Assembly (NCBI GenBank): GCA_963678675.1
Contig: OY783192.1
Span: 9,519,953 to 9,583,952, forward strand
DNA from: Xiphydria camelus
Lineage: Eukaryota > Arthropoda > Insecta > Hymenoptera > Xiphydriidae
Direction of reading: 5' to 3'
DNA: 64,000 nt
The position numbers and the translations under genes were made by a program. Every line of letters starts with the position of its first letter. The first letter of the stretch is position 1. Positions 4,489 to 39,487 of this stretch are shown piece by piece. Under the pieces are notes generated by a model that saw nothing but the letters and a program-made list of their open reading frames with translations, searched no databases and had not been told where the DNA came from.

Positions 4489-5268
4489 GCGACCGAACAA
4501 ACTGGATCCGCTACAGTGGGGATGGGAACGATTGAGAGGTGAAAATGCAATACTCATCCCTTCGAAACCAGTCTCCCTGCAGCTCCTGATGAAATTCTAC
4601 GGAAGGTGAGTTATTATGAACAATTTCTCAGGTACAATGTTGCCAAAGGACGGTATTAGTATATTGTTCAGTGCGTCAGTCACAATTACTACCTTAATTA
4701 TCGAAAAATGGTAATGAAAGTTGTACTTCTAAAAGTTTCTATGTGTAATATATGATATGTCCAAAAAACTCTGACGTTTTGAAGATTCACCGAATTTCTA
4801 TTCTAATAACTTCTACGCTGTGGAGCTAAATTCAATGTACAGAATGAAGCAGTTTAGACCAATCTTAATTATATCACTCATGAAAATTATTGCACGCGGA
4901 TCATTTCTGTTACCCTCCTCACTCTTCATCGCGTTAAATCATTTGCTTTCTCATTACAATTTATTAAATTGTGGAAAAATGGTTTCCAGGTGTCTTGCAT
5001 CTGTGCCTCTACTAACTGCAGCACATCCCGATATGTGTGTAAAAAGGCTGGGCTCCATTGCACCCCACTATATAAAAAATGTTCCGATAAAGATGAGTGT
5101 TCTAATCTACCAGTTACAGTATCAAATCAAACTTAAGAAGACATAGATTGCGAGAGTTCAGGGGGAGAAGGGGAAGAAGAAGAAGGAGATAGGGAAGAAA
5201 GAGATGTGGACGAAGGCGACGAAGACAATGAATATGATAAATCTGATCCTTATGAGTTCGAAACATAA
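4489..5268 (+). pseudogene. CXC-family gene 3' end, copy A (cut by gypsy LTR)
   Basis: Starting directly at the LTR edge, the plus strand encodes NKLDPLQWGWERL, then, after a one-base frameshift near 4573, PAAPDEILRK up to a GTGAGT donor at 4606. The next exon begins after TTTCCAG at 4990 in the same phase and gives VSCICASTNC, CKKAGLHC and further paired cysteines. That is the CXC-type tail seen in four other copies in this window. A TAA at 5134-5136 interrupts it, and an acidic tail rich in Glu and Asp continues in frame to 5268. Family: proteins of unknown function with a C-terminal tesmin/TSO1-like cysteine cluster. The upstream part must lie left of the window, beyond the gypsy insertion. 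It is broken by the LTR, one frameshift and one stop. Confidence 0.75.
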
Positions 5269-5611
5269 TAAATATAATAAAATAAACATAATAGTAAAAC
5301 GTAATAAAATAATGAATAATTTGCTGCCCCAAAATGATTTGAATTTCGGGAAAAAAGCGACATTATGATGTTCAACTCAGTTTACTTTTCGGAATAAAAG
5401 CGAAAAATATATTATTGGCGAACTACATACTCTAATTTTTATCAGGAAGAATGAGCGAAGGAGAAGGACAGAAGAGATAGAGAGAGATTGATTGATTTGA
5501 TTGATAAACATGTTTATTACCCATAGTTGGGCAAAAGGTTGCAGTATGACTGCATGTACAGCGTGTAAAATATGAAAAATTATAGGAAATTAAAGAATAA
5601 CAAGTAAAATA

Positions 5612-6019
5612 TGAAAATATTTTCGGCTATAAAAGACGAGATGGACAGCTCCACCCGATGCAAATGACAAAACCGCCTTTGCCAAATTCTTTAATCAGGT
5701 CTTGCAAATGTAATGCTGATTGCAGAACAATGTCCTGTAGTTTCAAAAAAACAAGATTAATTGTATCTCTCTTTGCAAATGCATCCACAACCATTGTAAA
5801 AACTTACCTGCGTAAGTGTTCAATTTTGTTATTTTTCAATACTAATTAATTATGTAAACTACTTATTTCTTTTTCCATTAATAATTAGATTTGTATTGCA
5901 TTATGATGTTGCCGTTTTTTTTATTTCATACCTTACCCAAATAACCTTTTAATAGTCAAGAACAACGTTTTTCTTACAGCTACAGCGACGGAATCGAAAA
6001 CTCCTATTATATTGCCTAA
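5612..6019 (+). pseudogene. CXC-family gene 3' end, copy B
   Basis: Reads GYKRRDGQLHPM, KPPLPNSLIRSCKCNADC and CSFKKTRL; then, after a one-base shift near 5757, it continues CISLCKC and HNHCKN. This matches the WGW-linker-CXC order of the other copies. A CGTAAGT donor at 5812 and a TTCTTACAG acceptor ending at 5979 would join a short last exon that stops at 6019. It is a second, separate tail 350 bp after copy A in the same orientation. I found no inverted repeats around it. Loss of the upstream exons and the frameshift make it a relic. Confidence 0.65.
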
Positions 6020-19221: not shown

Positions 19222-20656
19222 GGTGCCCATACACACAGAATTGTCGGTTTATCTTGTCGGTGAACGAAGGGCCTAAATAGCGCTTTCGGTTAGATTAGGA
19301 TGATATTAAGCGGTACGAACCGACGTTCCGTCTGTCGTGCTAAAACGCATGTTAGTGGACGGCGGCAGTTTTTCCCGTCGGTCTGGACTGACGGGTCAGC
19401 CTGTCGGTTCGATCTGGCGCGTCGCGCGCCCACTAACTGAAAGGTAAAACTGCCGGTTCGAACCGCGCCGTTCCAAACCGACAGTTCGACCTCTGTGTGT
19501 ATGGGCACCTATTCATAACGTTGTAACTCACAATCAGTCGCATTCATCAATAAACTGTTCTTTCGGGAAATATTTCCTACAAAAGCTGTCGAATTTTCAT
19601 TAGTAATGAACGCGTAGCAAGGAAGTTAGAAATACTCGTCGTTTGCAGCGATCGTTTACTACCTGGCCGCAATAAACTGCTATTTCTGGCACAGGCAAGC
19701 GCGGGTACGTACCCCGATGCCGCGACTTTCTCCGTGATGCGAATTTATCGGCACTGCACTGGTACGAAAGACGCGGAACGACGCAACACTCGATAGCAAC
19801 GGTCACAAATAAATGCACTTAGCTCAAATGTCAGGAAAAGAATTCAATTCCCGATATTAAACAAGTAATTAGAACCAAATATATGAAAATTTTCATACAA
19901 TTTTTAATATAATAATTAATGTTCACTTAATAAGGTGAAGAAAATTTGCTCATGGATAAATAAAAAATATAAAAACGCAAAATAAAAAGTCTCACATTGA
20001 ACGCTAAATTTATATTCTAATTGGTGGGAGAAAATAATCCTTGAGGTTAGTAATAATTTCAGTACAGGTTAGTATATTTTACCGTACCAGTGCAGCAGTT
20101 TCTACCCCGAAAACAGTAAAATCTCTCTCATTGTTTAACACTTTCAATCTATCTCAGCCATAATTTTCATTTATTCCAACCACATTTTTTATTTGATAAA
20201 GAGATCATATTTTACTTTCGAGAACATGAAAAACTCTTTGAATGCATGATATTTTTTGCTTTACTGACCAAATGCAACACGATTACCGTACCAGTTGGGT
20301 ATTTTTTCCCTGAATTTCAGGCAAATAGTACTGACGATTTCTCTCCGTGTACGTCATAGTAGCACAAGCCTAAATTTTATATATGTTACTTGGGGTACTA
20401 TTTTAAGATCTATTGTAAACAGCTAGATCAATCCGATGGGCTAAACATCCCCCAGGCACGATAAAAGTTCCGCTATGAGTATGAGCGCGAGCGCATTATT
20501 TATACGCACGAGTGCGAGTGAGGTGTACTCGGCGCATGGATCTCTCTTTCTTTTCGCATGGACTACTCTGTGTGAGTTAAGGTATTTCCTCTCCAAAACC
20601 ACTTTTCTCTAAAATTTGAAATTTTGGTCAAATAGAGATTGAGGCGTCCAGGTCTC

Positions 20657-22221
20657 TAGTCCAGGCGTCAGAGACTTAAAAATTGGAAATAGAAAAAAAT
20701 TGCGACAAAGCTGTTTTTTTAAATTTCTTCGTCATTATGTAAGTAATGAATATTACAAAAATGGATACACAAATTCCACCCGGAACATGTTTTTTAAACA
20801 ATTTTAATTGACAAGTTTTAGGTTTTTTGAGGAAATCTCGGAAACTATGGGTTTAATGGAAAAAATAGATATTAGAAATATTGTTCCTTATGAAATTTGC
20901 AATAAAAAATGTCTTTACAGTTTTGCCCCCCGCCGCGTATTTTTTGAGTTATGAGCTTATTATTTAAGTACTCCACGACTTCGCGCTGAGCATGTTACTA
21001 TCAAGCGACATTCTTTGAATTTTAAATTGTGCGTGGCATTTAAATTTCAATTTTACCGTATTTTAATGAGTTTTTGAGCAACATTATATTGGTTTTATAA
21101 TCCTATAAAAAAATACTTTTACATATAACACAAATACATTTGTTGAATAGTTATTTTGAACAGTATGATGCAAACTGCCTCGAAGGAAACACGGTTTGTT
21201 CCGTCGCGACAGACGGAATTTGACACATCGGTTCATACTGCTCGATATCATTGCAATCTAAGTGAAGCACTAATTTAGAATTAATCCCATGAACGGTCAC
21301 AATGACAAGGCAAGTGGTCTGTTTCGGCGAATGCAGGCTGCTAATGAGTACATACTTGGTTAGGAGAGCAATTATCACCTACATGCTGGGGGTGGAAACA
21401 AACATCGAACGGCCTATTACCAATAACTACAATGCAACCACCTGTACCCGAAGCACTTTTGAAAATTGTTTGCTGTAAATGCACCAAAGGCTGCTCTGGT
21501 TATTGCAGTTGTCGCAAGATTGGTCTCTACTGCTCCTCGATTTGTCGCCACTGCCAAGGACGCACTTGTTCTAACATTTCTACGAAAATTGACATAGAAG
21601 AAAATGTGGATGAATGTGTGGATATCGACATGGAAAACTTCCTTTCTGTCCAACTAGACGAAGAATCTGACGCTGAGGAGGCAACTGAAACGGAAATTCC
21701 CGAAGAAGATGCCGATTTCAACGATTCTCCAGTTAGAAAAAAAAAGTCCGATAGTAAATAGTTAATATACAAATAAGCGATCTTTAAATGAAATTTGTTT
21801 ATTCCTCTTCACTTTTCTCTCAGCTTAATCCATCCTTCTTATAAAATTAGCATAACTATGACAGTTCGCGACGCTACCAGAAGCCAGTATTATACGAGTA
21901 CAGTGTTCTATCAGTGGTCTGACTCTCAACGCGGTCTATATTTTGAAAACTATGGGTTTTACTGGAAAAATTGTAGACATTTTTTATTGCAAATTTTACA
22001 AGGATCAAAATTGTTCGTAACTATTTTTTGATTTAACGCATATTTTTCGAGATTTCCATAAAAAACCCGAAATTGCTTATTAAACTTGTTTAAACAATAT
22101 GTTCCGGGCCGAATTTTTGTATCCATTTTTTATTTATTATTTACTTATTAACGAAGAGATTCTAACAACAATTAGCTTTGTCGCAATTTTTTTGGCTAAA
22201 TAACCCCTGACTCCTGGACTA
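20657..22221 (+). mobile_element. CXC element 1 (long inverted repeats)
   Basis: Ends TAGTCCAGGCGTCAG and, reversed, TAGTCCAGGAGTCAG. Inverted arms at about 20657-20960 and 21940-22221 share TTGCGACAAAGCT and ACATGTTCCGGG-like blocks. Flanks are CTC on the left and TTC on the right, a 3-bp repeat with one mismatch. It is inserted in element F: the opposite arm of F lacks it. It carries only the last exon of a CXC-family gene, so it looks like a deletion derivative. Confidence 0.7.
21348..21761 (+). pseudogene. CXC-family terminal exon, copy 1
   Basis: Open from VHTWLGEQLSP, WGWKQTSNGLLPI and PPVPEALLKI into a complete cysteine cluster CCKCTKGCSGYCSCRK, then GLYCSSICRHCQGRTCSN, then an acidic tail (EEESD, EEATE) ending in basic KKKSDSK. 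The cluster resembles the CXC (tesmin/TSO1) domain, a zinc- and DNA-binding fold. An ATG at 21432 (MQPPVPEALLK) could start a 109-residue protein containing just the cluster and tail. Nothing upstream in the element matches the rest of the family, so it is a fragment, although this exon itself has no damage. Confidence 0.75.
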
Positions 22222-22224
22222 TTC

Positions 22225-24197
22225 TCTAATTTGTTCAGGTTTTTTGCATGTAGTTTAATTATTATTAATATTTTTTCAAAGACACTTTTATACGTGTTTC
22301 CTATACCCAAGCCGTAAAAATGACACATTTTCACCTTTTTATGGAAAACTGTAAATATTTTTGAAAAACTAGAGAAATGGAGAAAAAAATTAGAAACTTA
22401 TTTGTTCCTACCTATATTCCCTTCATTAGAATTAAAAAAGAAAATAAAGGGGGAACATTTTTTACATTTTTTTCCCCACATGTCATGGTCCACAGTTATC
22501 CGTTAATTTTGGGTAACTGTGGCCCTTGACGGGAAGACTGTGATCTACCTAGAAAACTGCACCTAAATGGTATTATAATGCGAGGGGTAACTGTGGGCTT
22601 AATGTTAAGTAATATTTTTAATGCAGAAGTGAATGAATGCATATTTAAAAAAAATAAATTTCCAATTTTCTTCTCTATCTCTAATTTTTCAAAAATATTT
22701 ACAGAACAGTTTTCCATAAAAAGGTGAAAATGTGTCATTTTTATGGCTTGGGTATAGGAAACACGTATAAAAGTGTCTTTGAAAAAATATTAATAACTAG
22801 CAGCCCGTCCCGGCTTCGCACGGGTAGATTGTGGATTGATTTTGTCCGTCCACCATTGTTTAAATACATTTTTAATACAAAACTTTTAGTATTTTTCCCG
22901 GGCTACGCTATGGTCATATTGGACTTGACCTTGACCATGACCTTCAAGGTTATATCGAGGTCAAATTAATTTTTTTTCACGTTCAAATGTGTCCTTGACC
23001 ATTTTTTTCATGTTACCTTTATTGTCAGCGGAGGTCAAATTTAGGTCAAGTATAGTTCGACTTTTTGAACACCCTGTATAAGATTTACTAACTCAGAAAC
23101 CTTCGCGGATATGCGTCCAACTGTTCCCCAAATTTTCATCGCAATCGGATGAACGGTTTAGGAAGGCATAATAATCATCCGTACCGGTACTTTTTGAACA
23201 CCCTGTATAAGATTTATTAACTCAGAAACCTTCGCGGGCATGCGTCCAACCATTTCCCAACTTTTCATCGCAATCGGATGAACGGTTTAGGAAGGCATAA
23301 TAATCATCAGTACCGGTACTTTTTGAACACCTTTTATAAGATTTACTAATTCAGAAACCTTCGCGGGCATGCATCCAACCATTCCCCAAAGTTTCATCGC
23401 AATCGGATGAACGGTTTAGGAAGGCAAATAATCATCCGTACCTGTACTTTTTGAACACCCTGTATAAGATTTACTAACTCAAACCTTCGCGGATATGCGT
23501 CCAACTGTTCCCCAAATTTTCATCGCAATCGGATGAACGGTTTAGGAAGGCATAATAATCATCCGTACCAGTACTTTTTGAACATCCTGTATAAGATTTA
23601 CTAACTCAAAAACCTTTGCGGGCATGCGTCCAACCATTCCCCAACTTTTCATCGCAATCGGATGAACGGTTTAGGAAGGCATAATAATCATCAGTACCCG
23701 TACTTTTTGAGCACCTTTTATAAGATTTACTAATTCAGAAACCTTCGCGGACCTGCGTCCAACCATTCCCCAACTTTTCATCGCAATCGGATGAACGGTT
23801 TAGGAAGGCATAATAATCATCAGTACCGGTACTTTTTGAACACCTTTTATAAGATTTACTAACAATAAGAAACCTTCGCGGGCATGCGTCCAACCATTCC
23901 CCAAAGTTTCATCGCAATCGCATGAACGGTTTAGGAAGGCATTTGATATTACCTTAAAGGTCACGGTCAAGGTCAAATCCAATACGACCACTGGGTAGCC
24001 AAGGGAAAATCCTTAAAGTTTTGTATTAAACATTTTTCTCTAAAATGTTTTGCCGCTGAGATAATCGGCCGTACCGGGACTTTTTAAACACCCTGTATAA
24101 GATTTACTAACTCAGAAACCATCGCAGGCATGCGTCCAACTATTTCCCAAAATTTCATCGCAATCGGATGAACGGTTTAGGAAGGCATACGAGACAT

Positions 24198-24244
<47 letters not shown>

Positions 24245-24310
24245 TTCATTTATATATATATATATAGATAATTAAACTACATGCAAAAAAATCTGAACAC
24301 ATTAGAGGAG
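22225..24310. repeat. long palindrome interrupted by a Helitron
   Basis: Arm 22225-22400 and its reverse (22670-22796, continued at 24269-24310) share TTTTGCATGTAGTTTAATTA and CACTTTTATACGTGTTTCC. The spacer of about 270 bp contains GGGTAACTGTGG twice. The right arm is split by the Helitron, the left arm is not. Probably a MITE with long inverted repeats. Confidence 0.75.
22797..24268 (-). mobile_element. Helitron family G, copy 1
   Basis: On the minus strand it begins TCTATATATATATATAAATG and ends GGGACGGGCTGCTAG, with a short hairpin (CCCGT/ACGGG) before the CTAG end. It sits between A and T with no target duplication, the Helitron hallmark. The intact left arm of the surrounding palindrome shows the empty site. 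It contains a CAGA run (24190-24240) and seven tandem units of about 128 bp (23062-23940) plus one degenerate unit near 24080. No Rep/helicase gene, so non-autonomous. Confidence 0.85.
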
Positions 24311-24914
24311 GTGCAGAATACGTCAATATCTATTTGACCAAAATTTCAAATTTTAGAGAAAAGTGGTTTTGGAGAGGAAATACCTTACATACACACAGAG
24401 TAGTCCATGCGATAAGAAAGAGAGATCCATAAGCCGAGTACATCTCACTCGCACTCGTGCGCATGAATAATGCTCTCGCGCTCATACTCATAGCGGAACT
24501 TTTATCGTGTCTGGAGGGATGTTTGGCCCATCACATTGGTCTGGCTGTTTACAATAGATCTTAAAATAGTACCCAAGTAACATATATAAAATTTAGGCTT
24601 GCTACTACGACGTAGGTTACCTCATTTTTTTGCGAACTTTAAAGCGTCTGGCAGAAGTTAGGGTCCACGGAAAGTGTCTGGCAATAATGAATGTTGGTTT
24701 TTAACGATATGCTGTAAAACATATATAAAAACCGGCTTTAATACTTTAACGTAGGTGAGTTAGGTTTTTATGTACCTTTGGTACCTGTTACCTGTAAAAG
24801 GGCCCCGCTTTTAAGCTAGCAAGTACGCATACGTTCTTAACTACATATCACACTATTTATTCACAAAATATTAGCTTTGCTAAAATGACGTAGGTCTTGG
24901 AGCTCTGGGATCTT

Positions 24915-25207
24915 ACTCACGCCAGCGCCCCGTGTACGCGGAACTTGTTTATGCCAGTATCCGAACCGAGTTAACCATAGGTTCGTTCCAACTAACACGA
25001 GAACTGGTTCTGAACTCGACGGAGTGTGCGCAGTGACCTAGCCGTTCCAACAAACACAGAACTGATTCTGGAACGATTCCAAATAGCGTTCCAACTAACT
25101 GCGAACTGTAACAGAACTGGTTCTCGAACGGTAATTTCAGTCCCTAGTTTTGAGTTGGGACGATTTTCTAGCGTAGTAAGGCTAGGGGAGCGAAACGCAT
25201 TCTATTT
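24915..25207. other. GGTTC-rich repeat end
   Basis: Contains AGGTTCGTTCCAACTAACAC near 24982 and several variants of GTTCTNGAAC. The reversed end GTTGGAACGAACCT lies at about 32983-32998. The two may be the outer ends of one large old element spanning 24980-32998, but their similarity is short. Confidence 0.35.
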
Positions 25208-25818
25208 GAATCGGTGAGTCCAAGAACAGTACAAATGCATAAAGATAGTTTTGAGAAAAAATGAAAAAAACATAATAACTTCACAATGAGTGAAGTTACG
25301 GCGTTGGCCATCATATAAAAGTTGTGATAGCTTTTTAGGTAAATGATAATTGAAAATAAAAAATCCGAAAAAATCACTCCCCTCCACGTTATAGAAGGAA
25401 AAAATGCATGCACTCTCTCTCTTGTACTGTTTATGGACTCAGTCTTTCTTTTTCTGCTTTTTTCAATTTTTGTATATGATAAGCTCTTGAAAACTGTAAT
25501 GAGGAATGCTAAATATGTGAAAGATATTTTATTAAGGAAATTTAACAAAAATGTTAATTAAAGAAACATTATATTGTCGACTTAGTTATCAAAAGATCTT
25601 CATCTGCGTAACTTTGCTTCCAAGAAGTTATATGATAGTAAAACTCCAGTGTTTCATTGTTAATATACTTCATAACTTTTTTAACATCAATGATCTTCTT
25701 GTGACTGATGGGAATCGGTTCTTAACAATATATGGAGCTTCGAATTTTAAACATTTTGGCTATCTCTAAGTCAAAAAACCATTTCTTGGACTTGTAGTGT
25801 TCTTGGACTCACCGATTC
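25208..25818. mobile_element. 611-bp TIR element (ATTT target)
   Basis: Perfect 20-bp ends GAATCGGTGAGTCCAAGAAC, flanked on both sides by ATTT (25204-25207 and 25819-25822). The interior is AT-rich, with no recognisable protein. The 4-bp target separates it from the TTA and TA families here. Confidence 0.75.
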
Positions 25819-25822
25819 ATTT

Positions 25823-26352
25823 CTATTCGGGGGCGTTGAAGGATATTTTAAAATATGCTAAACTTGCTCTCTCAAATATTGTTTACTGGCAAAGGTTTAC
25901 TAGTACGGAGAAAAAACTCAACTGTTAATTCCGATGATAACGTTAAAAAAGGTCAAAATAAATGTTTAGAAATTGCGGGAAAGACATGATGGATAACAGA
26001 AAACATTTTTTTATTCGGTAACATAATATGTACATGATTTTATTATGTGTATATTATTCTGTTGTTTATATAAAATACTATACGATTTAAGCTATTATAT
26101 CACGATATTTTCATTCGCAATTTTTTCAATGCTGTTATAATGAATTTGAATAAAAGGAGATAATTTCCTTGAGAAATCCAGTTAAGAAGCTGGTAAAATT
26201 AAATAGTATCATATAGAATACGTCGTTGGGAATGATTAAAATTCTTCATTGTATAGAATGATTTTGTTTTGGCGTAAATTTTATAACTTCATGTTCAGGC
26301 ATTCGTCCTTCATTTTAAAGTGTTTGTTAAATCTGAAAGAAGCGTACCTATT
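25823..26352. other. AT-rich unassigned stretch
   Basis: No gene or repeat end recognised. Confidence 0.35.
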
Positions 26353-26406
26353 ACACAGCTCCACAAAAAAAAATCGAAAAAATGCTTCCTCTGACCAGAC
26401 TAGTAT

Positions 26407-27314
26407 ACCTTTATGTTTTTGAGGTCGCTGAATCCGAATCCGGTCCGTCTGTCTCCATCACGTCACGTTCAAGGTCATTTCAAGGTCAAATCCTGGAAAA
26501 ATAGTCAAATCAATTCAAATTAGTATTCCTATATATTTTTGAGGTCGCTGAATCCGAATCCGGTGTCCGTTTGTCTCCATCACGTCACTTTTTTTTTAAT
26601 CTCAAAAAACCATCAATAGATCATGATTTTCAAAAAGTTAATGGACTTAAACCAAATTCGCTATAGGAGGTTTTTTGGGTCGCTGATCACGAATCTGAAA
26701 TCGGATTTCAAAAATTCAAGATGGCGGATCCAACATGGCGGACGAGATTTTCGAAAATCGACAGATTCATGCTGAATTTTTTGTAAGGGGGTTTTTTGGG
26801 TCGCTGATCATGAATCTGAAGTCAGATTTAAGAAATTCAAGATGGCTGATCCAATATGGAGGACGAGATTTTCGAAAATTTTGAATTTTTGTAAATATAA
26901 CTTCATATTCGTCATCAGCGATCGAAAAAACCCCTGTATAGCAAATTTGGCATGAATCCGTCGATTTTCGAAAATCTCGTCCTCCATATTGGATCCGCCA
27001 TCTTGAATTTTTTTAATCTGATTTCAGATTCATGATCAGCAACCTAAAAAAACCCCTTGTACCAAATTCGGTATGAATCCGTCGATTTTCAAAAATCTCG
27101 TCCGCCATATTGGATCCGCCATCTTGAATTTTTGAAATACCATTTCAAATTCGTGATCAGCGACCTAAAAAAACCCCTATAGCGAATTTGGTTTAAGTCC
27201 ATTAACTTTTTGAAAATCATGATCTATTAATGGTTTTTTGAGATTAAAAAAATGTGACGTGATGGAGACAAACGGACACCGGATTCGGATTCAGCGACCC
27301 CAAAAACATAAAGA
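26407..27314. mobile_element. 908-bp palindromic MITE (TA/TAT target)
   Basis: Ends ACCTTTATGTTTTTG and, reversed, ATCTTTATGTTTTTG-like, flanked by TAT on both sides. Arms of about 380 bp meet near 26900. Each arm holds two to three copies of a phrase with AAGATGGCGGATCCAA and CGAGATTTTCGAAAATC. The left arm has an extra 120-bp copy of its own end. Inserted in the left end of element J; the right end of J shows the uninterrupted sequence. Confidence 0.8.
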
Positions 27315-27447
27315 TATTGGGATCTGCCGAATGGCGCTATAACATCTGGTGGCGGAAAAAAAAAATCAGCTTGAGGTTGCAAAGTCCCAAACGAGTGCAA
27401 ACAGAAATCGTAACGCGTGTTATTTTTTCGATTATTTCATTTTATAA

Positions 27448-28440
27448 ATGTTATCTACAAAGAGGAATTTAACAGTGAAAGGGAAAGGAAGACTTGTTTG
27501 TTCAGTGCCAGGCTGCAAGTGTCAGGGGAAAAAACCAGTTTGAGGTTACAAAGTCCGGAGCGATTCCAAATATATTTGGTAATTTAGAGAAAATTGATCA
27601 GTTTCAATAATGGAAAAACGTATTAAAATTACAAAATGTTACGGCGAGTTCAAAAGTATGCTCACGTCACTTTACAAAGGATGATTACATATTACCAGGT
27701 AATTATTTAATTTTACTAAGGGCATGCTTGCGTTTAACCTTACTAATGTATTCCAAAATGATGTTGTATAGACAAAGCAACTCAACTAAGGCGATTGAAA
27801 AGCAATGAAGTGTTCCCTCGTATAACCTTCAGAATAATAAGAAAAATAAGGACCAATTAACTCGCTCGAAACTTTGGGAGGATCGGTTATTGCAAAGGAA
27901 TGCTAAAAAACAGATCCGAAGAAATGATGGATTCACCAAAGCGGGAAATGGAAATGGAAGATGAAAATTTATTAATGGACGAAACTTCAACGCACATCAA
28001 TGATGAGAATATAAATTTCACTCTTCTAGTTGTGTTAAAACATGATATAGGAGTGCAAGTGGAGACCGATTTAATGCGACTAAGATTTGTGGATTTTATT
28101 ACAAATGAAAGCGAATTAAGTACTCTTACAGGTTTCGAATCTTTTCAAATTTTAACAACCATTGTCAATCTTGTATGAGAAATGTTTGACGATCAATTGC
28201 AACATCATAATATGAAAATAAGTCTTTATGATAAAGTAGTAATGATGTACATAAAATTGAAACAAAATTTATCATTCAGTTGTTTAGCCATTCTGTTCCA
28301 GTGTTACCGAGCAAAGAATTGCAAAACAATATTTACCGATATGATAAAATGTTTAAAGCAGTGTTTAAAAGTATTTATTAAATGGCCTTGCAGTTTGGAG
28401 GCAATATACGGTGTAACACTTGTAACCTTTTCACTCACGC
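27448..28440 (+). pseudogene. THAP plus HTH transposase fragment
   Basis: The first part gives a THAP zinc-binding start (CSVPGC) and, after frameshifts and a TAA near 27607, the THAP end WKNVLKLQNV and KVCSRHFTKDDYILP before a GTAATT donor near 27701. A TTGTATAG acceptor near 27770 leads to RRLKSNEVFPRI-like sequence, an acidic stretch, TGFESFQIL, then KISLYDKVVMMYIKLKQNLS and IKWP, the helix-turn-helix block that precedes the DDE nuclease in THAP-containing PIF/Harbinger relatives (ISL2EU type). The nuclease is absent. THAP binds the element ends in such transposases. At least three interruptions make it a pseudogene. Confidence 0.65.
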
Positions 28441-28796
28441 TACTATTTCTCCCACATTTTATAATATGACCTGCTTTTAGTAGTCGCTTCCCCTCAATAA
28501 AATTCCTATTACTTGGTGCCGTAGGCACCGAGGCATAAATTTCACGTATACTAATCATTTTTCAGTTAAAAGCCTCGCTATCCCGTTTAAACGTATATTT
28601 ATTTGCAACCTCGTCGGCGCCATGACAGTTTAGGCTCCTCCCATTCGACAGATCCCAATACTGGTCTGGTCAGAGGAAGCATTTTTTCGATTTTTTGGAG
28701 CTGTGTTATCAAAACGATTATCATCAAATGAAATATGAATATTATATAAAATGAAAATATCCTGATCACAATCTAATAATAATTAAATAAACTTAC

Positions 28797-29282
28797 TCTA
28801 GAAAATCGAAGTCGATATTTGAATGTTCGCTCTGTATAAGCGCCCGGCAACCCCAGAAGAAATGAGATAAAGGAGAAAATTTAAACCTCTCGGTATAAAG
28901 TTTAGTAACAGTATCTTCGGATACATCTGTGGCTTCATTATACGTACGAAGATATACCTATTCTAAGCCAAGCCTTTTGCAATGTTTCCTCCGGATACAG
29001 AGAAAAATCAGGATTATATCTATACCTGAAAAATAAGAGATTTCGTATTACTTCTGTGCTATAAAAATGATTAGTTTGTGTGGTAAATGGATCATTTAAT
29101 TACCAGTAAATCCAATAAAATGATTGGATGTATAAAAGCCTCATATTTAAAAGCAGGGTACTTGTAGTCAATGAAAGTAACGCTATTTTCTTTTTCATTG
29201 TACAATACATTTCCCAGTAGAAGATCATTGTGAGCGTATACTATAGGACTATCAAGTTCTGAAAGAGTTTCCTTTAATCCTC
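28797..29282 (-). pseudogene. ethanolamine kinase-like gene fragment, two exons
   Basis: The first exon (29282-29104) carries the choline/ethanolamine kinase signature: IVYAHNDLLLGNVLYNE (Brenner-type HND) and VTFIDYKYPAFKYEAF; NHF-like residues then appear only after a frame change. It ends at a GTAATT donor. The next exon (29025-28797, after TTTTTCAG) gives NPDFSLYPEE, KAWLR, then after another one-base shift YLRTYNEA, TKLYTERFKFSPLSHFFWG and IDFDFLE, the known C-terminal region, ending at GTAAGT. The enzyme phosphorylates ethanolamine in phospholipid synthesis. Two frameshifts and no other exons: a stranded piece of a host gene, either moved by an element or left from an old duplication. 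Confidence 0.75.
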
Positions 29283-29370
29283 CGTAACCCGCGCACGAAC
29301 ATAGCGTGCCCTAATATATAAGGCAGCGGTTCTAGGTGTGACACTGAACAGCGCGGGCTACGGTTTAAGC
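29283..29370. repeat. short hairpin
   Basis: CCGTAACCCGCGC near 29282 and GCGCGGGCTACGG near 29353 form a stem around about 60 bp. Function unknown; small MITE possible. Confidence 0.4.
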
Positions 29371-30356
29371 ATCGATATTCCTTTTGAAGACCACATAAGG
29401 TCGGATTAGCCATTTAAATCTGGAAACAGAAGAGTATTGGAATACTTTACACAAATAAAATTAGATATCAAGCATACTCCAATACCTCACTTCGCGTCTT
29501 TTGCAGTATCCCTGAATCCCTTTGTAGTCCAGGCAACGAAGACCAAAAAGGCCGAATAGAGGGAAAAATTGACGGGGAGCCAAATTTTTGCACAGTTGTA
29601 GGGGAAGGTGTCACTAACAATATACTAAAAGTCCTGGTGGGTGGGAGTGGAGCTAAGGGGGGGGGGGGGGTCTATGGGTCCCCTTTTTCAGTTTTCCGTT
29701 AATAACTCGTAAACTACTACCTCTAGCGAAAAAAAGTTAAATAACAAATTAATCTACATAAAATTCTCTACAAGAAAGGTCTTATACACTTTTTCGCTAG
29801 GACTAATACTTCAGGAGATGTGGAGGGGGGGGGGGGGATGGAACATTAAAAAAATTGGTTTTTATTGTTAAAAATCAAAAATTTTAACGATAAATTAACT
29901 ATGCTCAGACCACATTTTAATGACTTTACTGCATGTAAGAGAGAGTGTAATCATGTAAAATATATCGACGTTGTCAAGTATAAAACCTGCTATGTGGAGA
30001 ACCTGCTATATGTCGCTTGGCAGTTTTTAACTAGGAAAAACTCTCTTTGATTTATGTGACATTCCTTCAAAAGTCATCCTAAATGATAATCCTAATTACC
30101 TTCCGGGGGATCATCCGGTAATCACCTGGGGTTAATCTTTCGATCGGTGAAGCAGGTTTATTTTAGGGAACATAGGTCATTAATACCTCGATCCCGCGCT
30201 TTTTCCGGACCGTGATTACCTAACGACCCCCGGGAAGGTAATTACCGGATGGCTCGTAATGAGCGTCATCATCCGTTGAACCGCCATTCCTCCTTCGGCC
30301 AATCAGGGTGCATAGTGTCGCCCACGCAATTCCCTCCGTCGACCAAACGTCGCTAA

Positions 30357-30391
30357 TATATAAGCTGGGACAAACCGCATCTTCATCAGTG
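30357..30391 (+). promoter_or_regulatory. core promoter of the CXC-family gene
   Basis: TATATAAG starts at 30357 and a TCAGTG initiator has its A at 30388, 31 nt downstream. The leader runs about 105 nt to the ATG at 30494. Its phrases AAGGTATCGCG and ATAGTGCATTCA also appear in the gypsy LTR near 4246-4276, about 80 nt upstream of that TATA box (minus strand). Confidence 0.65.
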
Positions 30392-30493
30392 TATTATCAC
30401 CCATCATAGTATCGTGTTCCGCGTCTCAACCTCACTCCCAGTCAAGTTAAGGTATCGCGAATCATCGATAGTGCATTCACGTAGTAAGTGACT

Positions 30494-32166
30494 ATGGCTG
30501 AGAAGTGTTTAATTTGTGACGGTAAAGTTGAAAGTGATTTGTGTAACGTCGTGAAAAAGGGATAGTTGGATTAGTGAAGGCAAGTGTGTTAAGGAAAGAT
30601 GGGAAAGAGAAAGGTTTCAGGAGTAAGACAAGTGGTGTTGTTCACCATTCTTGCAGAAAAGAATACGTCAGAAGTGACTCAATAAAGAGGTCTTTGAGAG
30701 AAACTCTTTCAGAGCAACCTTCAACATCACGTGATGCCTCGTCTTTGCGTTCAGGCAAGTGAAATTCGATTTCAAAATAATGTGTTTTTTCTGCACAGAA
30801 ACGTACGATGAAGAGAAGGAGAGAAAGAAACTTTATGCTAGGCATCAAACAGTTTATAATGTTGGTACGACTACGTTTCATAATTCCATTATCGTTCGTG
30901 GGCGGAAAAGAAAGGATGAGTGGGGAAACGACGTAGTAAGACGTATCTGCACTGTTGGGGATCTATACGCAGTAGATGCAATATATCATGAGGATTGTTA
31001 CAAAAAATTCATGCTCGCCTCTGCTCTCCGAAAAAGAAGCTATTAGAAGCAATGGAAGAAATCTACGATTACATTGAAGGGAATGGTAATTGCCAATTCT
31101 CTATTGACGAGTTGTTGGAACAGATTACGGGGGAAGTACCAGATATGAAGACCATCAAAGGGAGAATGAGGGAAAAATATGGGGACCGAATTGTTTTCAG
31201 CACAATTCGTACTAGATAAACTATCGTCTCCTTTCGTACTTTTAGTGATAAAATTTTGAGCGACTCATGGTACACTTCAAGGTGTAAAGATGAACAGACA
31301 GAACGTGAGAGAATTGTACGAAAAGCTGCTGGAATTATCTTGGAAGACATTGAATCTATGGCTTACGACAACAGTGCCTATCCTCCTTCAGCTAGCTTCT
31401 GCAGTAAGGCTGAACAATTAATACCTCAATCTCTCAGAGCCTTCATGGACTACATTGCAAAGAAAAAAAGGTCGAACGACACCACCTCAGCGATACATGG
31501 AAATAGCAAAGTGGGAATCGCTAAACTTTTCACAGCAAATCCTGGCCTTACCCATGACATCTCAGCAATATTCACAGATCCCTTAACTTCACCTGAAGAT
31601 ATTGAACAGGCTGGCGAGAAGCTTTTTCTGGCTGTATATCAAGCGCCTGCGCATCAAGACAACCTGAACAAACATCGGTACTCAGCATTTTTGAAAGCAT
31701 CAACGAAGCCCAAATTGGACATAGCCACTCTTCCTCCCACCAGAGGAGCTTCAAAGCAACACTCGCTCAGAGTATATCTACAGGTAAATTCATTTACATA
31801 TAGTTGTTAAATACAGGTTTCTTAAAATTAGGCATATCAATTTCTGCTAAATACCTTAGTCTGATTACTTTCTTACAGATACAACAGTGGCTCGGTAACC
31901 CCCTACCACCCACCCAATAGGGCTGGGACATGGGAGCAGATGGGATCCTCAACCCAGTTACCATGAACGACTCTGTGGCACCCGCTTCCGTTTTGAACAT
32001 GATCTTTTGCCGATGCACGACTGGGTGTGGAGTGCGCTGCGGTTGCCGCAAAGCAGGAATTGCCTGCTCCGGAGCCTGCGGCGTGTGCCTCAGCTCATGT
32101 ACGAACGGAGCCCCCATCCAAGACATCATCGATGATGATGAAAATTCAGATTCTGACGAAAATTAA
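30494..32166 (+). pseudogene. CXC-family gene, copy 2, internally deleted
   Basis: The N-terminus has paired cysteines (MAEKCLICDGK), then HHSCRKEYVR, then a second cluster MCFFCTETYDEEKERKK with a later CYKKF, then EAMEEIYDYIE. Frames change by single bases near 30562, 30753 and 31035, and TAA lies at 31217-31219. From 31256 it reads SDSWYTSRCK, AYPPSASFC and FMDYIAKKKRSN, then jumps straight to DTTSAIHGNSK. Copy 3 has over 100 residues before its matching DTTSALYRQGK, so the middle is deleted near 31478. It continues LFLAVYQAP, LPPTRGAS and VYLQ; an intron (31784-31878) follows, then QQWLGNPLPPTQ, TAG at 31918 where copies A and 1 have Trp of WGW, then CRCTTGC, CGCRKAGIAC and a DDDE tail. 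Function unknown. Confidence 0.8.
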
Positions 32167-32565
32167 TATTCAAGATACATCCTTGAACATTAATTATTTC
32201 ATTTTTAACAATAAACATTTCATTTTTAACCATAAAACCGATTTTTTTTAATTTTCCATTTCCCCCCTCCATATCTCCTGAAGTATTGATCCTAGCGAAA
32301 AAGTGTATAAGATCTTTCTTGTAGAGAATTTTATGTAGATTAATTTGTTGTTTAACTTTTTTTCGCTAGAGGTAGTAGTTTACGAGTTATTAACGGAAAA
32401 CTGAAAAAGGGGACCCATAGACCCCCCCCCCCCCCGCCCTTAGCTCCACTCCCACCCACCAGGACTTTTAGTATATTGTTAGTGACACCTTCCCCTATAA
32501 CTGTGCCAAAATTTGGCTCCCCGTCAATTTTTCCCCCTATTTTTCCTTCGCTGCCTGGACTATTG

Positions 32566-33571
32566 GCATGTGATCTAAACATATAATGATAAGCACAAAC
32601 CAGATCCACAAAATGTATACCACAGGTAGAGACGAGAATGCGACCCCTTCAATCATTTACGCCAATAAACAAAAAATGTAAAACACGAGTCATGAATGTT
32701 TACAGTTGCATTCCCGGACGTTTGTAGGTTAGAGCAGCGCGAAGGGGATTATCCGTAACTTCTAAATGGTGTCTATTTGAGAAATAGCAATTGAAAGAAA
32801 GACTTACGTTTCAACAAAATGTATACAAAAGGTGGACACAAGATGCAAGCCTCCCTGTGCTATGTGCAATTCTGTGTTCCAACACCTCCCATGAATTCAG
32901 TTCTAGAACGCATCTTTCTGGCGCATATGCATAAAATAGTTTTCAACTAGTTCCAGGATGGTTCTAGAACTGTCCTAATTTGCTTGTTGGAACGAACCTC
33001 ATTACTCGCGCCTGCGGACTCCTTCGATTGGTTTATTCTATCGCGTTTAAAGGGCCTTTGTCCAGCTCTCGTTTTGCCGCGTGTTGATGTACCGCAGGTT
33101 GCTCTCGGACCGACGTAGATTGACTCTCGCGCTTCGGTCCCATCTGACGGGTCAGAGCGATTACCACTTTCTTCCGGCGAAAATCCAGTATGGAGCTTGA
33201 CAGCCGTAGGAATTTATATACCGAGTGTTTTCGAGGCTGGACTATATACAAGACGTGTGAGTGCGAGTGAGGACGTTGATCAACCCGGGTAAATACATAA
33301 AAACTTCTCCGTCGCACACTTGAACTGGACTAGTTTGAGAAGGGCACAGAACAAGCGACAGAGAGACTCTTATGCGTCATCCAGGTTAATTGGTGTTCTC
33401 AAACGGATTCACGTACTCCCTATGTGCCCCCATCTTTAAAGCATATGTACTGGTATACGATGTATTGGCGTTTCCCTACTCTCTTGCGCGCGAGATGTTC
33501 TCGTGGGAACCTTGTCGACACAGCGACCGAGAGCCAATTATAAAGGAAGCAATTAGGATGCATCCACGGGG
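32566..33571. other. unassigned stretch between CXC elements 2 and 3
   Basis: Holds GTTCTAGAAC-type sequence at 32895-32975 and the possible GGTTCG element end at about 32998. A 94-codon minus-strand frame at 33033-33317 has no family I know. Nothing firm. Confidence 0.35.
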
Positions 33572-34141
33572 AAATAGGCCAGTCGCCAAGTCGTATAAAA
33601 TAGCTGATAACGGAAGCAATTCCGGGCAAGCTGGAAATAATTTTACTCTGTTTGTGTGTGTGTGATTTGGTGTTAAGAAGCACGTATTAAATTTGCACCC
33701 CCCAGAAAGCCCGAATTTGGCCGCCATCTTAACAAAAGGGGCTAAAAAATGTTTTTTCTTCGTTATTTGTCAATAACTCGATTTCTATAAAGTTAAGAGC
33801 AAAATATGTAGTTACCGAAATTAAAGCAAATTAAATTACCTATAAAAAATGTTCTATGTATTTTTCCGTGCGACTATCTGGTTCGAAGTTATATGGGCAT
33901 CAAAAGCTGGATATATTATAGGCACTTATTATGTTCTTTATTCTAGGCATATTTAAAAGCAAGCAACAGCTATTATGCTTTCATGATTGCATTCATATTT
34001 ATTTTCTGTTGGCCAACCCTACTCCTATTGTATACGGAATGTTTAACTCAAGGTCATTAACCCTGTAGCCACCTAAACAAAGAATGTCAGGTGTAAACAT
34101 CTAGACAGGGAAAGTCGGGCTTTTTCCCGATCGAGCCTCCG

Positions 34142-36015
34142 GAAATTCATTTTCATGAAAAAATGACGGCAACTGTATCTTAGGGAAAATTCTTGCCAAA
34201 TGAGAGGAATAAATGTCGAATAATCTCAATAATTTGTAATCGTTTGACGAACGAAGGTTTCAGAGTCAAGCAGGCTGATGAAGATGCTGATACATTAATT
34301 GGAGCAAGTTACTCGAAAAGAAACCATGCGCCATTTCCTAAATGTGCAGGAAATTGATTTGAAATATCTATTTGATTAAAAAATAATCTTAAACTCTTTC
34401 TGAATAATTTTTATCACATTTAATGTATTTTGGGTTAGTAATTATTATTCTATATACAACACTTCCAAATATTCAAAAATTAACTTTGATTTTGAATTTT
34501 TACGCTTGGTTCCTTTTCGATTTCAATAAAAAAGCAAGTTGGTTCTTTCTAAAGAAATATATTTTTTCTGAGAACATATTTTTTTCTTAAAATTAACCAA
34601 TAACATACAAATTTAAACGCAAAGCCATTCTATATCTAAATCATTCATCGGCTCTTTTAATAATTTAGCAATTTTTTGCCACCTGCTAGACATGTTTCTG
34701 TAAACAAAATATGTGATGCAATTATAAGGACACAAACCTTTAAAATCCGAATCGAAATTTAAAAATTATTACTTCTCGTATTACGACTGCACCGTTACAC
34801 AAACCAAGTGACACTGACGGACTGACGCGGTTTATTCAAAAAGAACCAAACGCTTGGATCCCTTTCTAGAATATACGAATACGTGTTTCACAAACACTCG
34901 GTCGGTTGGTTCTTTTACCAGCAGATATCACTAAACTACTTTTAACATGTGGATATTTTTGTAGTAGCTGAATAAGTCATTTCAGAGTCGTTTGGCACCC
35001 ATAACTAAAAAATTAGGTTTTGGTGCATGGTTCCCTTTCGAGTAACTTGCTCCAATTGTCAACACTGCAATTGAAGAATCAAATCACTATAAAACGGGAA
35101 TTATAATTGACGAAAAGACACCGATTTACTGATAATTCTTACCGCCTTAAATGGGTCTCGCTCTAATATTTATTTTCTAAAGCCAGGCAAGGGAAAGTCG
35201 CAAAGTAGAATGTATGCACCCCATAATATGAATTTGGATGCTTCAATTATGGACAACATTTTATTTCTACACGCATTTAGTGGCTGCGATACTACATCCG
35301 CACTATACAGGCAGGGAAAAATGAAATTCGTTGAAGGTTTAGGTACAGAAAGAAAAAAAATTACAAAAAACTGTACAAATATTTAAATACCAAAACGCAT
35401 CCCTAGCGGATATAGACAAAGTTGGAGAACAATTTCTTCTTTATCTGTATGGATAAAAAAATGCGACTCATTAAATAAATACCCATACCAGTGTTTCGTA
35501 CAATCTATTACCAAAAGCTTACCAAACCTAGCATCGTTACCGCCAACCGAAGATGCAGCTCGCTTGCACTTTTTCCGTACTTACCATCAGGTACAGCTAT
35601 GGTATGGAAATGACAAATCAGCTTTAGATTGGGGATGGAAAAATTAAAAAAATGGGTTAATGCCCATTGCTACTTTACAAGACACAGCTCCCCAAGAATT
35701 ATTGAAACTTATTTCTTGTAAATGCGCTAAAGGTTGTAATGCAGTTTGTAGCTGCCGCAAAGCAGGTTTGGGTTGCAGGTGTGTCCAGGCTCAGTACTGT
35801 ATGCATTTTGCCAGGGAAAATCTTGTTCGAATACTTTGGAAGTGGTCGAATTAGATGACGAAGACTACGAGGAGAATTTCCCTATCGATATAGAAAGAGA
35901 TCTAAACCAATCAATAGAATATTCTGCACATTATGAGCCAGGTCCGGAATATGAGACACATGTTGAAGACATTCAGGATGATATTGAGGGTTATATTGAA
36001 CAGCCAGTAACATAA
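34142..36015 (+). pseudogene. CXC-family gene, copy 3 (middle and 3' part)
   Basis: Reads EIHFHEKMTATVS, TAG at 34181, FLPNERNKCRIISII, NRLTNEGFRVKQADEDADTL up to 34300, then, after a 753-bp insertion, VNTAIEESNHYKTGIIIDE in the same frame from 35057. A two-base shift follows, then DLLIILTALN, IYFLKPGKGKSQ, FLHAFSGCDTTSALYRQGK. Further on come LPPTEDAARLHFFRTYHQVQ, LWYGN, WGWKN, a TAA, LISCKCAKGC, CSCRKAGLGC, one more frameshift in the cysteine cluster (CQGKSCSN follows) and an acidic tail ending at 36015. The N-terminal third present in copy 2 is missing. Function unknown. It has at least two stops and three frameshifts. Confidence 0.8.
34301..35053. mobile_element. 753-bp TIR insertion in CXC copy 3 (AATT target)
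   Basis: Ends GGAGCAAGTTACTCGAAA and, reversed, the same 18 bases. AATT is at 34297-34300 and 35054-35057. The CXC reading frame continues across the insertion when it and one AATT are left out, which proves both ends. AT-rich interior, no protein. The pair GCTTGGTTCCTTTTC (34504) and AAACGCTTGGATCC (34848) gives an inner inverted piece. 4-bp target, as in the element at 25208. Confidence 0.85.
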
Positions 36016-37218
36016 AAAAGGCGAACAAACTCTGATGAGCCTACAATCTCAAAAGAAACTTAGTTATCTAAGTTGGTGGCATAGTGGATTAGGCCTATTG
36101 GGGAGACCACTTTAAAAAAACGCGCCGGGTACTTCACCTCTAGGTGGTGTGGAAGCAAATACAAGTATGTGACATGATTTCTTTACCAAATAAAAATGTA
36201 TATCACCAAAAAGTAATAGAATGTGTTTAAGAGTACCTACAATAAGAAAATTATTATTAAGTGCTCATTGACTTATCCAAGTTTCGAGAGTTGGACGCCA
36301 ACAACTTCAAAACAGGTAGTCGTACAAAAAATGTACATAACGTTTTTAATAGAGTATCTACTCTTCCTTCATTTTAATAATTACATATTTTGCTATAAAA
36401 TTGATACTAATCGAGATATTTGCTAATATTAAGAAACAATTCTTTTTTTGGCCCCTTTTTCAGCATAGCAGCAAAATCCAGGCCTGTTTGAGGATGCAAA
36501 ATTAATAGGTATCTTGTTGGTCAAAGGAAAACAGATTAAAATTTATTCCAGCTTGTCCGGATTTGCCCCCGCTATTAATGCACTTATCGACTGGCCTAAA
36601 ACTCGAAATTGCGGGCATTAAAAAACGCCCGAGAAAAAGCGATAGACCGTCCTTGGTAACACCCCAACGGGAGGCTCGATCGGGAAACCCCAACTTTCCC
36701 TGTCCAGATGTTTACACTCGACATTCCTCGTCTAGGTGCTTACAGGGTTAATGACCTTGAGTTAAACATTCCGTATAAAACAGGAGTAGGGTTGGCCGAC
36801 AGAAAACAAATATAAATACAATCATGAAAGCATAATAGCAGTTGCTTGCTTTTAAATATGCCCAGAATAAAGAAAATAATAAATGCCTATAATATATCCA
36901 GCTTTTGGTGCCCATATAACTTCGAACCAGATAGTCGCACGGAAAAATACATACAACATTTTTTATAGGTAATTTAATTTGCTTTAATTTTGGTAACTAC
37001 ATATTTTGCTCTAAACTTTATAGAAATCGAGTTATTGACAAATAATGAAGAAAAAACATTTTTTTAGCCCCTTTTCTTAAGATGGCGGCCAAATCCGGGC
37101 TTTCCGGGGGGTGAAAATTTAATACGTGCTTTTTAACACCAAATCAAATAAATTAAAATTATTTCCAGCTTATCCGGAATTACTTCTGTTATTAATGCAC
37201 ATATCGACTGGCCTAAAA

Positions 37219-39487
37219 CTGGAATACGACGAAATGACGGAGCGTTGTGAAAGGGGGTGGTCAAATTTAAGGAGGGTCCTCAGTATTTTTATGAAAAATG
37301 AATACAATGATGTACAGCTTTGAACTTTTGAGGATATATTCATTAATTAGTTCTCAATAAATCCTCAAAATTTCAAAGAAACTTACCGTACGCATTTTCG
37401 AGAAAAAAAATAATAAAAACTTCCGGGGTAGAGAAAGAAAAATTGCAACGATTGACGGAAAAACTTGATTTGGAAATAGAGGAAAGTGTCCAAATATAGG
37501 GTACTTTTTTTTAAACCACTATAATACAAAAATGTAGTGACTTTTAAACACTATTTCTAAATTTTGCGTTTCCTTGAACACTTTTTAAGCATTTAATAAG
37601 AAGAAACAGGTTTTAAAAAAATGCAGAAGAAAATATGCAGCATTGAAAAAAAGTTTCACTACCCCATATTAGGAGTATACGTTATCCTAATATGGGGTAC
37701 ACTATGTTAACATGTAAAATTTGAAAATAACTAAAATTATTTTGGGTTTTTTGTATAAAAACTATTTATTTATGGAAATGAAATATAAAAATTATATCTA
37801 ACAAAAGATTTTTTTCTTATGAACCAAAAAATATACTTATCTAAGAAGAACACAAAACAAATCTATTTACTAGCGCAAAAGTCACAAATATACCGGCTTT
37901 TTTCACAACCAGAACATTCAACGTGATTCCATATGAAGCAGCCTTGACACATCGCTCATTCTTCGCCTTTAAGATACCCCAAATTAGGAATTGATAGGTA
38001 TCCCATATTAGGAGCAAACTAGATTTTTAGGAGGGGCGACTTTTTGCAAAAAATGTGGTGTTCTTTTAAAAAACAAAACCATTTTCATAAACTACGCAAA
38101 ATTTTATATAGAATGATATTATTAAAACTTTTAAAACTCATCTTTAAGTCTCCTTAAACGTCCAAAATGCAACAACTCCAAAAAGAGAATGGGCACTTTC
38201 TGGCAAGCCGGTGATTAGTACGCAATTTACAAAATAGATGTCGGAACTAATACTTGCTCAAAATTTAACTACCCCATATTAGAAACTATCCTCATATTAG
38301 GGCACTCCTCTACATTCTTAGAAAGTTAAATTTTATATTTCCACAATAAAAATGCCCACTAACCGTTCTAACTTTTGAGCAATAATGAAAAAACCATCAG
38401 GTAACCTAGAATTTACTTTGAATGAGATAGAAATTGCGGTGAAACTTGGCAACGGCTCAGTCGAAGACTCGCTTGACGCGCTTTGCGCATGCGCTGGGAC
38501 ACTGAGCGGGCACTTGCAGGCACTTTTCTTAATAAATTTTCCTTTTACTTGTGACTGTCCTTGATGCTCCATGGCTTTCTTCATATTTTTCTCTTCATAA
38601 AATAACAATGTACTTCACTTGCTTGCACTCGTGAACACAGGACATAACCTCATTAACACATATGACTCACCTCATAACATATGACTTGTCATCACAACCG
38701 CGCAAGTTTTAATGGTAACGTTCCGATTTTACCGTCTGGACCAATACCAACCACTTATTCCAAAAAAGCGTGGTTGCCAAGTTTATTCAATAAATCTAAT
38801 TCATTTATAAAATTCGGAATTAATAATTTGTCAATTGGAAATTAAAATCCAAGGTGCCAAATTGAATGATAATCGAAAGAAACTATTTTAGAAGGTTTTC
38901 CGTAAGCATCATTGCATTTTTAAAAAGTTAAAATTTTGTTTCTACAAGTTGCAGCTGACTGTCGGCACCTTTGAAGTTTACCCCTCACTCCTTACCCCTA
39001 AATTCAACTGAGGACCCTCGTAGGGGGGGACAAGCGTATATGAGTTTTACCGCGGAGTAATAAACGATTACCTAATTCTAAGTGAATCTATCTACTAGAA
39101 TCTCGGGAACGTACTCGATATTATTTTACCCTTTCTCAGTCCCTCGATCTTTCGTTTCGTTCGCCTCTTCCTTATTTCTCCCGCGCCGATACGTGCGATT
39201 TCCGACTTCTGAGAGAGGAATTTCTCCGAGTCCTCCGCAAAGTACGGTGGCGCGGGAAGAGAAATTAAAGCCGTCTTTTTTTTCCCCCGTCTTCTTCTTT
39301 TCCCTCCCTCCCTTTCACCCTTTTCTCCCTTCCAGAATCCACTTATCCGCTACTTTCGAACTTCCCCGGAATCTCGAATTTGTTTCTTCAGGTTGCCGCG
39401 GTAACGTCGCGCGACATCGAAGAGTTATGCCGCGCCTCCATTGCTGCACCGGGCGCGATTTGCGATACGTGACGCACCCAGTCTGAA
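37219..39487. other. unassigned stretch
   Basis: The phrase CCCCATATTAGG or close variants occurs several times between 37660 and 38290, in both orientations, so an old repeat is likely, but I cannot place its ends. A 91-codon minus frame at 38333-38608 resembles nothing I know. No gene supported. Confidence 0.35.

What the first reader, a model, noticed from the sequence alone, without database searches (positions are those of the whole stretch)
20657..37215. CXC-tailed genes inside long-inverted-repeat elements: a candidate new DNA transposon group
Seen: three separate segments (20657-22221, 29525-32562, 33575-37215) each have inverted arms of about 280-550 bp, each enclose a gene of the same family in the same orientation, and have similar outermost bases (TAGTCCAGG, TAGTCCAGG, TAGGCCAGTCG). 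The last two are flanked by exact 3-bp repeats, TTG and AAA; the first by CTC/TTC. Arm sequences otherwise differ, so these are not recent copies of one element. Known: I am aware of this family only as uncharacterised proteins with a tesmin/TSO1-like end in insects and cnidarians. Inference: the protein is the transposase or an essential partner of a transposon group with TAG...CTA ends and 3-bp targets.
Basis: partly seen in the sequence, partly recalled or inferred. Interest (0 to 1): 0.9.

Follow-up and report, generated by a model that had tools for sequence, protein, structure and literature searches.

The report
Jumping gene with built-in nuclease
Three decayed DNA transposons sit side by side here; in the same genome intact relatives carry one very large protein that joins a cut-and-paste transposase, a DNA-repair-type (FEN1/XPG-like) nuclease and a cysteine-rich tail, most likely a branch of the known Academ transposons.

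Summary
Each segment is a transposon copy with TAG...CTA ends. In the window's own genome e2-type and e3-type copies are repeated (40 scored of 255 and of 335 candidates); 39 of 39 other e3-type copies start at that end; 11 of 16 elements have an exact 3-bp duplication (mismatched pairs 6 of 240). One copy lies inside a sister copy, and 11 of 13 other copies show the clean empty site. The window copies are broken: none keeps the catalytic transposase half. Full-length relatives encode one protein of about 1,475 residues: Cys/His pairs, an RNase H-like DDE transposase (nearest folds P element, Transib, Hermes, RAG1), a FEN1/EXO1/XPG-type nuclease with conserved catalytic acids, and the CXC tail. 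One 6,486-bp copy has an open frame, 99%-identical 597-bp arms and a GTA duplication. 'New group' is probably wrong: DDE plus nuclease, 3-bp duplications and 5-6 kb length fit AcademX of the Academ superfamily. No Academ sequence could be compared, so membership is likely (about 0.85), not proven. Ten paper searches (listings, few papers opened) showed no description of the CXC tail on it.

The parts
20657..22221 (+). Element e1: short non-autonomous copy, TAGTCCAGG...CCTGGACTA, flanks CTC/TTC
   Evidence: inserted in one arm of a palindromic element whose other arm lacks it
21348..21761 (+). Last exon of the transposase gene (CXC tail) in e1
   Evidence: tblastn with 185 of 245 family proteins; stop-to-stop frame of 137 codons
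29525..32562 (+). Element e2: internal-deletion copy, TAGTCCAGGCA...TGCCTGGACTA, target duplication TTG (29522-29524 / 32563-32565)
   Evidence: 93% and 95% identical to full-length copy L011 on either side of a stretch missing here, L011 1975-4679 of the element
29525..29879 (+). Left terminal inverted repeat of e2
   Evidence: 90% over 359 columns with 32218-32562
32218..32562 (-). Right terminal inverted repeat of e2
30494..31483 (+). e2 gene remnant, N-terminal part (Cys/His pairs and following region), with frameshifts
31478..32163 (+). e2 gene remnant, end of the nuclease domain and CXC tail, split by a short intron, by eye at about 31784-31878
33575..37215 (+). Element e3: truncated copy of another subfamily, TAGGCCAGTCG...CGACTGGCCTA, target duplication AAA (33572-33574 / 37216-37218)
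   Evidence: 39 of 39 other scored genomic copies begin at query 97-103, the element starting at 101; full-length relative L037
33607..34140 (+). Left terminal inverted repeat of e3
   Evidence: 91% over 535 columns with 36670-37192
36670..37192 (-). Right terminal inverted repeat of e3
34142..34300 (+). e3 gene remnant, part of the nuclease domain (P0132 residues 1114-1166)
35054..35988 (+). e3 gene remnant, rest of the nuclease domain and CXC tail, with stops and frameshifts
36303..36598 (-). Second, diverged copy of the e3 right terminus (72-73% like 36918-37224, same orientation); L037 has the same feature at 788-980

Best explanation
e1, e2 and e3 are decayed copies of related DNA transposon subfamilies, most likely of the AcademX lineage of the Academ superfamily. 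Shown: a unit bounded by TAG...CTA with inverted repeats of about 0.24-0.6 kb inserts at dispersed sites and duplicates 3 bp; full-length copies have one gene whose product carries Cys/His pairs, a DDE region, a FEN1/EXO1/XPG-type nuclease domain and a CXC tail; the window copies lack the DDE part. Inferred: the Cys/His pairs (taken as zinc-binding) and/or the CXC tail bind the terminal repeats; the DDE domain (D, D, E as in P element, Hermes and RAG1) cuts the ends and joins them to target DNA with a 3-bp stagger (cut and paste); the fused structure-specific nuclease trims a branched or hairpin intermediate, for example the second strand at the donor or the 5' flap or gap at the new joint. 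Broken copies such as e2 would be moved in trans by intact ones.
Confidence: 0.88

Rival explanations
1. The family is a DNA transposon superfamily of its own, not Academ: it merely shares a nuclease partner, short target duplications and length with AcademX.
For: No Academ sequence was compared. The passage read names only 'nuclease' for AcademX; that this nuclease is XPG-like is my recollection. No CXC tail is mentioned in the Academ passages read. The host range fits Academ unevenly.
Against: DDE plus nuclease, 3-bp duplication and 5.7-6.5 kb length all fit AcademX (3 or 4 bp; mean Academ length 5,565 bp in bivalves). A screen of whitefly counts 1,097 Academ copies (PMC9143410), and this family is present in whitefly (P0045); that these are the same elements is not shown.
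Confidence: 0.12
2. A host gene family (CXC proteins) that lies by chance between unrelated inverted repeats.
For: The window is rich in inverted repeats: 68 pairs of 60 bp or more. Decayed family pieces at 4487-5121 and 5553-5786 have no enclosing repeats among the 25 longest pairs shown for that region.
Against: Copies across the genome share the same ends, arms and gene, with target duplications and an empty site; full-length copies carry a DDE domain.
Confidence: 0.01
3. The CXC/nuclease gene is a passenger captured by transposons that are moved by another, unrelated transposase.
For: The three window copies contain no DDE domain.
Against: Full-length copies in the same genome encode DDE, nuclease and tail together. 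In 30 long proteins (picked for length) D422, D425, D588 and E827 of the DDE region and D1048 of the nuclease are invariant, and the other nuclease acids and the tail cysteines are kept in 90% or more.
Confidence: 0.02
4. The nuclease domain is not catalytic; it is a DNA-structure reader that positions the ends.
For: Sequence identity to solved FEN1/EXO1/XPG structures is low (9-18% in the structural alignments).
Against: The seven counted acidic positions are kept in 84 of 88 non-gap proteins at the lowest, nearly as strictly as the DDE residues.
Confidence: 0.1

Closest known systems
AcademX lineage of the Academ superfamily (Repbase; in PMC10045372 the nuclease-encoding lineage with 3 or 4 bp TSDs)
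   Same: DDE transposase plus nuclease, 3-bp target duplications, element length 5.7-6.5 kb
   Different: DDE homology to reference Academ not tested; the CXC tail and the TAG...CTA ends could not be compared
AcademH (PMC10045372)
   Same: DDE transposon with an accessory enzyme
   Different: helicase and 9-10 bp duplications; here a nuclease and 3 bp
KolobokE / KolobokP / KolobokD (PMC9587614, passages read)
   Same: DDE transposase with an accessory nuclease
   Different: nucleases of other folds (lambda-exonuclease-like, His-Me finger, DEDDh); Kolobok shares the C/DxxH motif, here the motif is GGFH
P element, Transib, Hermes (hAT) transposases and RAG1
   Same: RNase H-like core with a large helical insertion before the catalytic E
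   Different: no fused flap-type nuclease; duplications of other lengths (8, 5, 8 and 5 bp; recalled)
FEN1 / EXO1 / XPG / GEN1 nucleases
   Same: fold and acidic active-site positions
   Different: here one domain of a transposon protein, 9-18% identical in the structural alignments

Membership tests
AcademX (Academ superfamily) | Target duplication of 3 or 4 bp | tested here: met
   Exact 3-bp duplication in 11 of 16 elements; mismatched pairs 6 of 240. Definition from PMC10045372, passage read.
AcademX (Academ superfamily) | Encodes a nuclease besides the DDE transposase | tested here: met
   One gene with DDE and FEN1/EXO1-type domains. That the AcademX nuclease is of XPG type is recalled, not read.
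AcademX (Academ superfamily) | DDE domain homologous to reference Academ transposases | not testable with these tools
   No Academ sequence was at hand; the two papers sought are not held.
AcademX (Academ superfamily) | Element length in the Academ range | tested here: met
   5,752, 5,764 and 6,486 bp against a mean of 5,565 bp for bivalve consensus sequences in PMC10294476.
AcademH | Helicase and 9-10 bp duplications | tested here: not met
   3-bp duplications; no helicase among the 8 Pfam families listed for 30 proteins at E up to 0.1.
DDE transposase, RNase H-like | D in the first strand, D after a later strand, E on the helix after the insertion | tested here: met
   D85/D88 in strand 79-89, D251 after strand 246-250, E496 in helix 491-504 of model P0240; conservation; fold (but no Foldseek hit at E <= 0.001).
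hAT/P/MuDR/Kolobok/Dada signature group | C/DxxH between second D and E (PMC9587614, passage read) | tested here: not met
   The conserved motif is RLGGFH: H281 in 86 of 86 non-gap rows, and the third residue before it, G278, is a glycine in 90% or more.
FEN1/XPG nuclease family | Fold and catalytic acids | tested here: met
Tesmin/TSO1 CXC (Pfam TCR) | Cys pattern recognised by the family model | tested here: inconclusive
   Nine near-invariant Cys and a final CxN and UniRef names, but no TCR hit in Pfam.

The most novel reading that the evidence does not exclude
These elements form a separate, undescribed animal transposon superfamily whose transposase has fused a P-element/RAG1-like DDE core to a flap-type nuclease and a CXC DNA-binding tail, so that one polypeptide both moves the DNA and does a processing step normally left to host repair enzymes; it is intact and recently active in this genome.
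Probability: 0.12. Interest if true: 0.75.

Novelty: new member of a known kind. Interest (0 to 1): 0.45.

Why it matters
Many animal proteins filed as 'uncharacterized' or 'Tesmin/TSO1-like CXC domain-containing' are here shown to be transposases or pieces of them, so gene catalogues can be cleaned. A DDE transposase fused to a FEN1/XPG-type nuclease makes a question testable: whether a transposon can bring its own enzyme for second-strand, hairpin or flap processing, and whether this sets the 3-bp duplication (PMC10045372 suggests that the partner enzyme is related to duplication length in Academ). The genome has copies with open frames and nearly identical arms, so there is natural material for the test.

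Tried and rejected
Chance inverted repeats or host gene: rejected. Passenger gene: rejected. Pfam on five window pieces: one match below significance. Phage collection with one e2 piece: no match. IMG/VR with the family alignment: 43 pattern hits, none confirmed as a relative. Foldseek of the DDE model against PDB and the viral library: no match at E <= 0.001. A strict motif count on 68 long proteins found all ten motifs in only 17; the expressions were too narrow, and the alignment count replaced it. My longer arm alignments over-extend with many gaps and are not used. One search placed the right end of e1 4 bases too far left; searches use 22221. In one search L010 was read 3 bp off; its flanks are TAG/TAT, inexact either way. 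L021 has two matched right ends; the inner one (2,443 bp) was used, the outer one being that of the host copy. In one search two further loci (L028, L017) matched the L021 flanks on one side only and are not among the 13. The e1 arm search and the e2 arm-plus-flank search did not complete, so the left end of e2 was not tested with flank, and e1 has no genomic copy test, only the twin-arm empty site, which is imprecise at the junction. Ten paper searches (capped listings) showed no title or abstract that describes this protein; passages of eight papers were read.
Full report
OBSERVATION. The three segments exist at the stated coordinates with the stated ends and flanks. The arms are far beyond chance: 79% over 238 columns, 90% over 359 and 91% over 535. 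TAGNCCAG occurs on the + strand of the window only at the three left ends. Each segment holds pieces of one protein family on the + strand. Older pieces of the family at 4487-5121 and 5553-5786 lie outside the repeat pairs shown for that region (25 longest of 44).

THE WINDOW COPIES ARE BROKEN. Mapped on full-length relatives (P0132, P0137, P0166), e2 keeps about residues 1-350 and 1260-1430, e3 about 1114-1435, and e1 only the end from about 1344. Against the full-length copy L011, e2 is 93% and 95% identical on either side of one missing stretch of about 2.7 kb. Thus none of the three holds the catalytic transposase domain.

THE PROTEIN. A search with the e2 read-through gave 17 proteins among 3,003 candidates. 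Two more searches gave 150 proteins (120 listed) among the 7,996 candidates scored, and 151 (120 listed) among 7,993; 245 proteins were in hand. Source names include moths and butterflies, aphids, whitefly, beetles, ants and parasitoid wasps, thrips, stick insects, a sand fly, a spider, a coral and a snail. Several species have many entries, for example eight of Dryococelus australis and five of Phaedon cochleariae in the two lists; some may be pieces of one copy. Full-length members are mostly about 1,475 residues. Conserved parts in order (30 long proteins, P0132 numbering; all invariant or kept in 90% or more): two Cys/His pairs (C8, C11, H54, C57 and C96, C99, H167, C170); a DDE region (D422, D425, D588, H617, E827); a nuclease region (D1048, D1088, D1161, D1163, D1186, D1188, D1242); a tail with nine cysteines.

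MOBILITY IN THE OWN GENOME. The search of the genome (357 Mb, 38 contigs) was answered three times. The e2 arm has 255 first-look candidates, 40 scored, all matching at 85-100% (this query held no flank). I fetched the 20 best of the 39 others; 18 of 20 begin TAGT at the expected end, and 12 of 20 had a matched right end within the stretch. The e3 arm with 100 bp of flank has 335 candidates, 40 scored; all 39 others begin at query 97-103, the element starting at 101. Over 16 elements with both ends (12 fetched, e1-e3, L037) 11 have an exact 3-bp duplication; pairing the left flank of one element with the right flank of another gives 6 of 240. The 2,443-bp element in L021 sits inside another copy of the same family: with it and one ATG left out, the flanks align without a gap at the junction with 11 of the 13 copies whose match spans it, e2 of the window among the 11; L019 and L022 have small gaps there. 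e1 lies in one arm of a palindromic element (20393-24574) whose other arm lacks it, with some divergence at the junction.

INTACT COPIES. The protein search of the genome returned 34 rows for 32 scored places of 2,988 candidates; 17 of the 32 places have no stop inside, 10 of these with frames of 1,370 residues or more (counted by hand). L037 is an e3-type element of 6,486 bp with 597-bp arms 99% identical, an open frame of 1,511 codons carrying all domains, and flanks GTA/GTA. It is 48% identical to P0137. It also carries a second diverged terminus like the one in e3, so the inner right end of e3 is a feature of the subfamily. L011 and L013 are full-length e2-type copies with stops and frameshifts.

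HOW IT LIKELY WORKS. Shown: movement as a TAG...CTA unit with 3-bp duplications. Inferred from fold and conservation: DDE cleavage and strand transfer with a 3-bp stagger; binding of the ends by the Cys/His pairs or the CXC tail; processing of a branched, flapped or hairpin intermediate by the fused nuclease. Which substrate the nuclease cuts is open.

WHAT IT IS CALLED. PMC10045372 (passage read) says that AcademX makes 3 or 4 bp duplications and AcademH 9 or 10, and links this to the nuclease and the helicase that they encode. PMC10294476 (passages read) gives a mean length of 5,565 bp for bivalve Academ consensus sequences. The present elements fit AcademX on these counts. That the AcademX nuclease is XPG-like is my recollection of Kojima 2020, which is not held. 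DDE homology to reference Academ could not be tested, and the host range reported for Academ in molluscs and one aphid fits unevenly. I therefore rate the Academ label at about 0.85 and the finding as a new member of a known kind. Of curated Pfam families only DUF6589 recurs, in 13 of 30 proteins (best E 1.7e-8).

Noticed in passing
34301-35053: A 753-bp element with inverted ends of about 41 bp (GGAGCAAGTTACTCG...) flanked by AATT on both sides interrupts the e3 gene inside a conserved nuclease motif.
   Followed up: partly
20393-24574: Palindromic element with about 250-bp arms (93%) that contains e1, a 535-bp inverted-repeat element (22262-22796, 91-bp arms 99% alike) and an array of units of about 128 bp (from 23060) also found near 46.4 and 61.8 kb.
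   Followed up: partly
4487-5121 and 5553-5786: Strongly decayed CXC-tail pieces of the same family without enclosing inverted repeats seen.
   Followed up: partly
1-3661, minus strand: Retroelement-like stretch, including a 496-codon frame (2171-3661) with what looks like a CCHC knuckle (by eye).
   Followed up: no
26405-27317, 54274-55094, 60070-60662: Short inverted-repeat (fold-back) elements; the window is generally rich in inverted repeats.
   Followed up: no
L038:517-7240: Another subfamily with an open frame of 1,468 codons and 92% arms of 315 bp but no TAGNCCAG end; the true ends were not determined.
   Followed up: partly
L037:788-980: A second copy of the element's terminus (70% like the right end) just inside the arm, also present in e3; its role is unknown.
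   Followed up: partly
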